The notes under the pieces: model-generated | What the model was told of the DNA's origin: nothing | Databases searched by the model: none | What the model saw: only the letters and a program-made list of their open reading frames with translations | Position numbers and translations under genes: made by a program | Assembly (NCBI RefSeq): GCF_045679555.1 | Contig: NC_092091.1 | Coordinates: 77,184,461 to 77,248,460 of the forward strand | From: Salvelinus alpinus | Taxonomy: Eukaryota; Chordata; Actinopteri; Salmoniformes; Salmonidae | Length of the DNA: 64,000 bases | Direction: 5' to 3' | In this document: positions 15,973 through 18,900 of the stretch, piece by piece | Position numbering within the stretch: the stretch's first letter is position 1 | Layout of the letters: each line of letters opens with the position of its first letter

Positions 15973-18900
15973 ATGTCTGGAGAAAAGTCTAAATCTGCTT
16001 CCCAGACCGACGGCAAGGCCGCCCAGGGGAAGAGATCTGAGATGGGCATGAACGCCTACAAGGTAACACACATGCATGCATACACACACACACACACACA
16101 CACACACACACACACACACACACACACACACACACACACACACACACACACACACACACACACACACACACACACACACACACACACACACACACACACA
16201 CACACACACACACACACACACACACACACACACGCATGCATGCATATACATACACACACACACGCACACATATAGGCACACACACATATGCACACATGCT
16301 CACACACACATGGACGCATTCACACACATACACACACAAACACATACATGCATGCATACACACACACACACACACACACACACACACACACACACACACA
16401 CACACACACACACACACACACACACACACACACACACACACACACACACACACACACACACACACACACACACACACACACACACACACACACACACACA
16501 CACACACACACACACACACACACACATAATGTATGCATACAAAACCAGATGGCCACACATATATGTTATATAATTGTTGGTACTTTGACACTCGTACGTA
16601 ACTACTCACACACTGTTTCCACACAATGCCTCTAGTTGGCTGTGGTGGTAAGTCACAGTTGCCATAGCTATGTGTGTGTGGAGGCGTTCTAAGAGAATCA
16701 CACAAGGACAGTGTCTGCGTCCAAAATGGCCCCGTTTCCTATATAGAGCACTACTTTTGACCAGAGCCCTAGTGCACTATATAGGGAATAGGGGACCATT
16801 TGGGATTCAAAAAGTGTTTGTTTTGTTACATTACACAGTTCAGCCTCAAAGAAAAAGATGTGAGAATTAAACTGTAATTTCTCTCTTTTATCTTTCTCCT
16901 CTCTCTCGCGCTCTCTCTTACCCCTCCCTCCCTCCCTCCCTCCCTCCCTCCCTCCCTCCCTCCCTCCCTCCCTCCCTCCCTCCCTCCCTCCCTCCCTCCC
17001 TCAACCTCTTTCTCTATCTACCTCTCTCTCCCTCCTCTCTCTCCCTCTCTACCTCTCTCTCCCCCCTCTCTCTCCCTCCCTCCCTCTCTCTCTCCATCTC
17101 AGATGTGCGTCTTCGACCAGGAGAACTTCCAGGGCCGCTGTATGGAGATCACCAATGAGTGCATGAACGTGTGTGACATGGGCATGGACAGGGTCCGCTC
17201 CCTGCGTGTCGACTGCGGGCCGTGAGTACCAGCCTGTCCCTCGACACACACACACACACACACACACACACACACACACACACACACACACACACACACA
17301 CACACACACACACACACACACACACACACACACACACACACACACACACACACACACACACACACACACACACACACACACACACACACACACACACACA
17401 CACACACACCTCAGCTTCACCAACACACACCTAATCCCCACATGCACTTGTAGTGAAATCTTTTCCTTACACTAACGCTACTATGACACACCCATACCTG
17501 TTTGTCAATCTCACACAAACTAACATTTATTCCTATCAAATGTTGCTGCAACCATGGTTCTCAATGTGTTCCTGCCTCTCTCTATCCCCCTCTCCGCCCC
17601 CTCCCTTACCACTCCTCTTCCCTTCTCCCTCTCTCCGCCCCCTCCCTTACCCCTCCTCTTCCCCTCTCCCTCTCTCTCCCCCTCTCTCTCCCCCTTTCTC
17701 CCTCTATCAGTTTCGTGGGTTATGAGCAGATGAACTTCTGTGGTGAGATGTTCATCCTGGAGAAGGGAGAGTACCCTCGCTGGGACTCCTGGAGCAACTG
17801 TCAGAAGAACGACTACCTGCTGTCCTTCAGGCCCGTCCGCATGGTATGTCACACACTCCTTCGTTTGTCTCTCCCCATCACTCTGTCCTTCAGGCCCGTC
17901 CGCATGGTATGTCACACACTCCTCCGTTTGTCTCTCCCCATCACTCTGTCCTTCAGGCCCGTCCGCATGGTATGTCACACACTCCTCTGTTTGTCTCTCC
18001 CCATCACTCTGTCCTTCAGGCCCGTCCGCATGGTATGTCACACACTCCTCTGTTTGTCTCTCCCCATCACTCTGTCCTTCAGGCCCGTCCGCATGGTATG
18101 TCACACACTCCTCTGTTTGTCTCTCCCCATCACTCTGTCCTTCAGGCCCGTCCGCATGGTATGTCACACACTACTCTGTTTGTCTCTCCCCATCACTCTG
18201 TCCTTCAGGCCCGTCCGTATGGTATGTCACACACTACTCCATTTGTCTCTCCCCATCACTCTGTCCTTCCATCTCTCCAGCACTACATCTCTGTCATTGG
18301 CCAGAATACATTTACATACACTTATCTGAATATCATGTATTTCTGCTGTTAGTAATCATCTCTCTTAACATCCATCCATATTCATTCATCTATTCATTAA
18401 TTTATCATCCATCCACCTACTCATCCATCCATCCATCCATCCACCTACTCATCCATCCATCCATCCATCCATCCATCCATCCATCCATCCATCCATCCAT
18501 CCATCCATCCATCCATCCATCCATCCATCCATCCATCCATCCATCCATCCATCCATCCATCCATCCATCCATCCATCCACTCATTCATTCATTCATAAAT
18601 TCATTCATTCATCCATCCATCCATCCATCCATCCATCCATCCATCCATCCATCCATTAATTTATCCAAACTGATCAGTTCGGCCTGTTATCGGCCTGTTA
18701 GTTATGTTATGTTAGTTTTTAACTCCACCTCTCTCTCTCCCCCACCTCCCCCCCCTCTTTCCCCCTCTCCCCTCTCTCTCAGGACCCTGAGAAGCACAAG
18801 ATCTGCCTGTTCGAGGTTGGAGAGTTCAAGGGTCGTAAGATGGAGATCATGGATGATGATGTTCCCTCTCTGTTCTCCTACGGATTCACCGATAGGGTCG

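What the first reader, a model, noticed from the sequence alone, without database searches (positions are those of the whole stretch)
17820..18269. Tandem array that multiplies a crystallin 5' splice site in frame
Seven 63-bp units start inside coding exon 4 of the beta-B1 gene. Each carries the exon end (GCCCGTCCGCATG) and the donor GTATGT. Each also has a pyrimidine tract ending in CTTCAG directly before the exon piece, so it resembles a 13-bp mini-exon between an acceptor and a donor. The unit is 21 codons with no stop, so using donor 2 to 7 would lengthen the protein by 21 to 126 residues at the linker between the two crystallin domains without shifting frame. The first donor is the family-conserved one; use of the others is inference.
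Basis: partly seen in the sequence, partly recalled or inferred. Interest (0 to 1): 0.72.

Follow-up and report, generated by a model that had tools for sequence, protein, structure and literature searches.

The report
Minisatellite repeating a crystallin splice donor
In what looks like a salmonid fish genome, a short DNA stretch covering the end of one coding piece of a lens crystallin gene has been copied seven times in a row, giving seven identical RNA-cutting signals; most likely only the first is used and the rest are harmless intron, but this has not been tested on RNA.

Summary
The array is real: seven 63-bp units plus 9 bp at 17820-18269, starting 24 bases before the end of exon 4 of an intact, constrained beta-B1-crystallin gene (218 codons). 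All seven units carry the donor ATG|GTATGT. Donors 2-7 would add 21-126 residues in frame. Inserting one array exon (acceptor CTTCAG to donor) after donor 1 shifts the frame to a premature stop in 21 of 21 combinations. The genome search found the array at one place, in 1 of 9 beta-B-type loci; the two closest paralogs have short, array-free introns. The window is 41% tandem arrays (12 hand-picked control stretches: 8.7%), 12 of its 24 longer arrays have a period divisible by 3, and a stop-free unit is expected (0.76), so the open frame is not special. Published minigenes with two identical donors 52 nt apart, flanked by long introns, used only the upstream donor; introns here (489 and 561-939 nt) are long too. 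Best reading: a minisatellite seeded across an exon-intron junction, silent because exon definition picks donor 1. Use of the spare donors is possible and unproven. It is a new example of a known kind (tandem repeats at exon-intron boundaries), of moderate interest.

The parts
15973..16062 (+). crybb1 exon 2, coding part (N-terminal arm, 30 codons, donor GTAACA)
17103..17221 (+). crybb1 exon 3 (Greek-key motif 1)
17711..17843 (+). crybb1 exon 4 (Greek-key motif 2), ending at donor 1; its last 24 bases are the start of array unit 1
17820..18269 (+). tandem array: seven 63-bp units (starts 17820, 17883, 17946, 18009, 18072, 18135, 18198) plus a 9-bp partial copy CTGTCCTTC (18261-18269)
17844..17849 (+). 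donor 1 GTATGT, at the junction position shared by 9 of 9 beta-B-type loci
17907..18227 (+). spare donors 2-7 (GTATGT beginning at 17907, 17970, 18033, 18096, 18159, 18222), identical 9-mers
17888..18208 (+). six acceptor-like CTTCAG sites behind a pyrimidine tract (ends at 17893, 17956, 18019, 18082, 18145, 18208)
17844..18782 (+). intron 4 (939 nt from donor 1; 561 nt from donor 7)
18783..18925 (+). crybb1 exon 5 (Greek-key motif 3)
20163..20334 (+). crybb1 exon 6, coding part to the stop codon (Greek-key motif 4)

Best explanation
This is a minisatellite whose repeat unit happens to straddle the exon 4/intron 4 junction of a working beta-B1-crystallin gene. A first tandem duplication copied the last 24 exon bases and the first 39 intron bases (shown by the anatomy; the 9-bp repeat CTGTCCTTC at both ends fits a microhomology seed, inferred). 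Slippage or unequal exchange then expanded it to seven copies (inferred), with the three identical copies in the middle (shown). The gene tolerates it because splice sites are paired across the exon first: both flanking introns are long, so the donor nearest the exon-4 acceptor (donor 1, 133-nt exon) is taken and the six spare donors and six acceptor-like sites leave with the intron (inferred from published minigene work). The normal 218-aa protein is the main product (inferred).
For: Array and units. One place found in the genome: (the tool scores only its best candidates). Array in 1 of 9 beta-B-type loci; the junction position is conserved in all nine. The two closest paralogs (C4, C7) have array-free introns 4 of 224 and 204 nt. 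The coding sequence of exons 3-6 is constrained (dN/dS 0.082 against C4, 0.095 against C7). The neighbourhood is rich in arrays (26,057 of 64,000 bases, period at least 10) against 10,382 of 120,000 in 12 hand-picked stretches. Frame preservation is unremarkable. Introns of 489 nt and 561-939 nt. With two identical donors 52 nt apart and 365-nt flanking introns, only the upstream donor was used (PMC9225289, section 8), with a preference for shorter exons (passages). The donor 9-mer is identical in all seven units, so no copy is stronger at the site itself.
Against: No RNA was examined; the step 'donor 1 only' is borrowed from human-gene-style minigenes with two donors, stronger than these (CAG/guaagu against ATG/GTATGT, 6 of 9 matches to that consensus). 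Seven competing donors were not tested there, and with both donors weakened the larger exons were mostly skipped. All seven donors and all acceptor-like sites are intact, and 4 of 5 variable columns fall within 6 bp outside the splice signals (P 0.005). This could reflect constraint, although two of those columns are one CpG in units 1 and 2, and exonic against intronic differences (1 of 168 against 7 of 273) are not significant (P 0.16). The seed model is untested: the C4 and C7 introns align too poorly to show an ancestral CTGTCCTTC.
Confidence: 0.72

Rival explanations
1. The spare donors are used at appreciable levels, so the gene makes a ladder of beta-B1 proteins with 21-126 extra residues at the inter-domain linker.
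For: Seven identical donors; 63-nt in-frame unit with no stop through all seven units; the RNA is less folded than its shuffles, so no predicted structure hides the sites (z +4.03); a comparable in-frame ladder is shown for human UBC (PMC10809524 sections 7 and 9).
Against: Minigenes with two identical donors under exon definition used only the upstream one; exons would grow to 196-511 nt; the inserted peptide is largely intron-derived and the gene is constrained; the frame is expected by chance.
Confidence: 0.13
2. Array acceptors and donors are recognised as pseudo-exons (13+63m nt), giving frameshifted, decay-prone mRNA, so array length tunes crystallin dose.
For: Six acceptor-like sites with pyrimidine tracts, each followed by donors; with exon 4 ending at donor 1, 21 of 21 acceptor/donor combinations give a first stop at aa 120-225, that is in exon 5.
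Against: No RNA evidence; the smallest exon is 13 nt and one-unit introns are only 50 nt; selection should remove strong decoys from a constrained gene.
Confidence: 0.07
3. Intron-proximal choice dominates and donor 7 is used, giving a 344-aa protein.
For: Classical work favours the donor nearest the acceptor across the intron (Reed and Maniatis, as described in PMC9225289; passages).
Against: Introns here exceed the boundary of about 250 nt between intron and exon definition given in that paper; exon 4 would be 511 nt.
Confidence: 0.03
4. The copy number, or the whole array, is an assembly artefact.
For: Only one assembly was available and no reads; a 100-N gap sits 3.1 kb downstream of the array at 21369-21468.
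Against: Units carry position-specific variants with an identical middle and divergent ends, unlike a stuttered join.
Confidence: 0.05

Closest known systems
Internal tandem repeats at exon-intron boundaries (PMC2812944, 2009; passages seen)
   Same: A minisatellite spans an exon-intron boundary and differs in copy number between paralogs.
   Different: There, transcripts support altered introns in human segmental duplications; here there is no transcript evidence, and the conserved donor itself is multiplied.
UBC polyubiquitin array of dual-specific splice sites (Duan 2024, PMC10809524; abstract, sections 7 and 9 seen)
   Same: Tandem in-frame units each carrying splice signals, so splicing could change repeat number without shifting the frame.
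   Different: UBC uses one AGGT motif as both donor and acceptor and each unit is a protein; here no unit has AGGT, acceptor and donor lie 13 nt apart, and use of an array acceptor breaks the frame.
[quoted passage not shown] passages seen; Rogers 1989 and ATP2A1 as cited there)
   Same: Tandem duplication near an exon-intron junction copies ready-made splice signals.
   Different: Those are duplications with a new spliced intron supported; here no new intron is shown.
Paired identical donors under exon definition (Carranza 2022, PMC9225289; abstract, section 8 and passages seen)
   Same: Identical donors a short distance apart behind one acceptor with long flanking introns.
   Different: Two designed strong donors in transfected minigenes; here seven natural medium donors in a fish gene.

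Membership tests
Minisatellite (internal tandem repeat) at an exon-intron boundary | Head-to-tail copies of a unit of some tens of bases | tested here: met
   63 bp, 7.1 copies, 98%
Minisatellite (internal tandem repeat) at an exon-intron boundary | Array covers an exon-intron junction | tested here: met
   24 exon bases inside the array
Minisatellite (internal tandem repeat) at an exon-intron boundary | Copy number differs between paralogs | tested here: met
   array in 1 of 9 beta-B-type loci
Minisatellite (internal tandem repeat) at an exon-intron boundary | Transcripts show changed splicing | not testable with these tools
   no RNA data
UBC-type dual-specific splice-site array | AGGT motif serving as donor and acceptor in each unit | tested here: not met
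   AGGT in 0 of 7 units
UBC-type dual-specific splice-site array | Unit length a multiple of 3, open frame | tested here: met
   63 nt, no stop
UBC-type dual-specific splice-site array | Ladder of transcripts differing by one unit | not testable with these tools
   no RNA data
Intron gain by tandem duplication | New intron spliced from duplicated signals | not testable with these tools
   donor-to-acceptor introns of 50-365 nt are possible on paper
Beta-B1-crystallin gene | Four Greek-key motifs, one per exon, best match to beta-B1 | tested here: met
   1oki 'beta crystallin B1', E 5e-81, best of 58 listed; exons

The most novel reading that the evidence does not exclude
A length-variable array of seven equal donors acts as a built-in splice ladder: some lens transcripts use donors 2-7, so individuals with different copy numbers make different sets of beta-B1 crystallins with 21-residue steps in the linker between domains, and the array's own splice signals are kept intact by selection.
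Probability: 0.1. Interest if true: 0.65.

Novelty: new member of a known kind. Interest (0 to 1): 0.36.

Why it matters
It is a clean natural test of how the spliceosome chooses among identical donors: seven copies with identical 9-mers and near-identical context, one acceptor on each side, in a constrained gene. Lens RNA from one fish would show whether cross-exon proximity alone silences six of seven equal donors, or whether a ladder of proteins is made. It also shows how a repeat can cross a splice junction without obvious damage to the reading frame of the gene.

Tried and rejected
Rejected: a multi-donor feature shared by the crystallin family (the array is in 1 of 9 beta-B-type loci). 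Rejected as evidence: the open reading frame (expected 0.76 given composition; 12 of 24 comparable arrays have periods divisible by 3). Inconclusive: selection on the repeated exon part (1 of 168 against 7 of 273 differences, P 0.16; clustering of variable columns P 0.005 but partly one CpG). Inconclusive: ancestral microhomology, since the window's collapsed intron aligns poorly with C4 and C7. RNA folding gave no structure masking the spare donors; 100 of 100 shuffles fold at least as well as the stretch. Rotation test: arrays of period at least 10 touch 1 of 12 recognised window exons where random rotation gives 6.2 on average (P of 1 or fewer 0.0056; with the 10 exons first used, 4.96 and 0.014), so arrays avoid exons and this one is an exception. 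Two of the 12 exon intervals are approximate (the 1494-1637 exon was entered as 1512-1637; the third receptor exon was taken to the end of its open frame). Paper searches listed no paper that by title or start of abstract is about this array; one search returned none at all. Not done: a structure prediction of linker-extended proteins, scans of the viral, metagenome or bacterial collections, protein-family or RNA-family scans, a splice-site program such as MaxEnt. Limits: exon bounds in the 46-exon check come mostly from tblastn hits and leave out window exon 2, one cryba4-type exon and the third receptor exon (added); the 12 control stretches were round coordinates picked by hand, one near the window on C6 and one with 853 N; the 11 matches of the exon search were all that the tool scored, so further paralogs may exist.

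Full report
What is there. The window lies at G000:C6:77184461-77248460 of a 2,367,770,401-base genome in 928 contigs. A beta-B1-crystallin gene runs on the + strand: coding exons 15973-16062, 17103-17221, 17711-17843, 18783-18925 and 20163-20334, which join to an open frame of 218 codons. The 188 residues of exons 3-6 match the PDB chain 1oki, named beta crystallin B1, at E 5e-81, the best of 58 listed sequences. A cryba4-type gene (name by resemblance and recall) lies head to head with it on the - strand.

The array. TRF reports 17820-18269, period 63, 7.1 copies, 98% matches. Each unit is the last 24 bases of exon 4 followed by the first 39 bases of intron 4; after seven units there is a 9-bp partial copy. 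Differences from the modal unit are 2, 1, 0, 0, 0, 1 and 4, with five variable columns (21, 39, 42, 43, 44); copies 3-5 are identical and the ends diverge. This looks like a normal minisatellite and not a stuttered assembly. All seven 9-mers at the donor are ATG|GTATGT.

Consequences for the message. Donors 2-7 lengthen exon 4 from 133 to 196-511 nt and the protein from 218 to 239-344 aa. Three 13-nt mini-exons together would restore the frame. Retention of the intron runs to a stop 161 codons past the exon end. The array could therefore add to the protein mainly as a donor ladder, and would harm as an exon source.

How special is the frame? Of 24 non-overlapping arrays with period at least 15 and at least 3 copies in the window, 12 have a period divisible by 3. 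Given the composition of the 39 intronic bases, 13 codons are stop-free with probability 0.76. The open frame is therefore no evidence of function.

Surroundings. 26,057 of 64,000 window bases lie in arrays of period at least 10, against 10,382 of 120,000 in 12 hand-picked 10-kb stretches, one of them 75 kb from the window. Arrays touch 1 of 12 recognised window exons, where random rotation gives 6.2 on average (P of 1 or fewer 0.0056); in the 46 exons checked across the window and eight other loci, 1 is touched. Arrays thus avoid exons, as selection would predict, and this one is the exception.

Relatives. Searching the genome with exon 4 gave 11 matches, all that the tool scored: nine beta-B-type loci, including the window's own, and two partial matches to cryba4-type genes, one of them in the window. 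In all nine the exon ends at the same place followed by GT; the last codon is ATG in 7 of 9, and the GTATGT donor is found in the window copy only (for two loci the end is extrapolated by 4 and 10 bases). None of the other eight shows the array. The two nearest, on C7 (89%) and C4 (86%), have introns 4 of 204 and 224 nt. C4 and C7 are closest to each other (dS 0.27); the window copy is more distant (dS 0.49-0.59) with dN/dS 0.082 and 0.095, so this copy is under constraint and its normal splicing presumably works.

Mechanism. Carranza and colleagues (PMC9225289; abstract, section 8 and passages seen) built minigenes with two identical donors 52 nt apart in an exon flanked by 365-nt introns; the upstream donor was used exclusively, and they place the change from intron to exon definition at about 250 nt. 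Here intron 3 is 489 nt and intron 4 is 939 nt from donor 1 and 561 nt from donor 7, with identical donors 63 nt apart. By that rule donor 1 wins and the array behaves as intron. This is an inference from another system. In that study, weakening both donors led to preferential skipping of the larger exons, and the donor here is of medium quality (6 of 9 matches to CAG|GTAAGT, against 4-6 of 9 in the other eight loci).

What would speak for function. All donors and acceptor-like sites are intact; 4 of 5 variable columns cluster in 6 bp between the donor and the pyrimidine tract (P 0.005). Two of those columns form one CpG, a mutation hot spot (recalled), and the exon against intron difference is not significant (P 0.16). 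The predicted RNA is poorly folded, so no predicted structure hides the spare donors. I keep a 10-13% chance that some transcripts use them.

Compared with the known. Tandem repeats at exon-intron boundaries that change splicing are described in human segmental duplications (PMC2812944, passages). Intron gain by tandem duplication is described in potato and, as cited there, in ATP2A1 (PMC4974935, passages). The closest working analogue found is the UBC gene, where a tandem array of AGGT sites gives a splice ladder in frame (PMC10809524, abstract and sections 7 and 9). No unit here has AGGT, so it fails that family's defining motif, though a donor ladder would work in a similar way. I file it as a new example of a boundary minisatellite, neat because the true donor itself is multiplied in a constrained lens gene. 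Nine full-text searches listed no paper that by title or start of abstract is about this array.

Noticed in passing
window 1-64000: 41% of bases lie in tandem arrays of period at least 10, against 8.7% in 12 hand-picked 10-kb stretches of the same genome; one of these, 75 kb away (L021), has 22%.
   Followed up: partly
21369-28211: A 100-N assembly gap abuts a 42-bp array of about 160 copies, so that array's length is uncertain.
   Followed up: no
L013, L014 and window 955-20334: Three head-to-head crybb1/cryba4-type clusters (C6, C4, C7); C4 and C7 are closest relatives, and the exon-4 search showed no closer partner of the C6 copy.
   Followed up: partly
1494-2213: A 17-bp array (1649-2213) ends about 12 bases upstream of the exon of the cryba4-type gene that begins at 1637 on the - strand, so it reaches its acceptor region.
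   Followed up: no
42239-43349: A 32-bp array of about 35 copies whose unit contains donor-like AGGTGAGTA, not in a gene I recognised.
   Followed up: no
7558-9137 (-), 37377-38198 (+), 39795-40467 (+): Reading-frame fragments that look like non-LTR retroelement reverse transcriptase (by eye, no search).
   Followed up: no
55108-56969 (+): Leucine-rich-repeat gene resembling a Nogo receptor (by eye).
   Followed up: no
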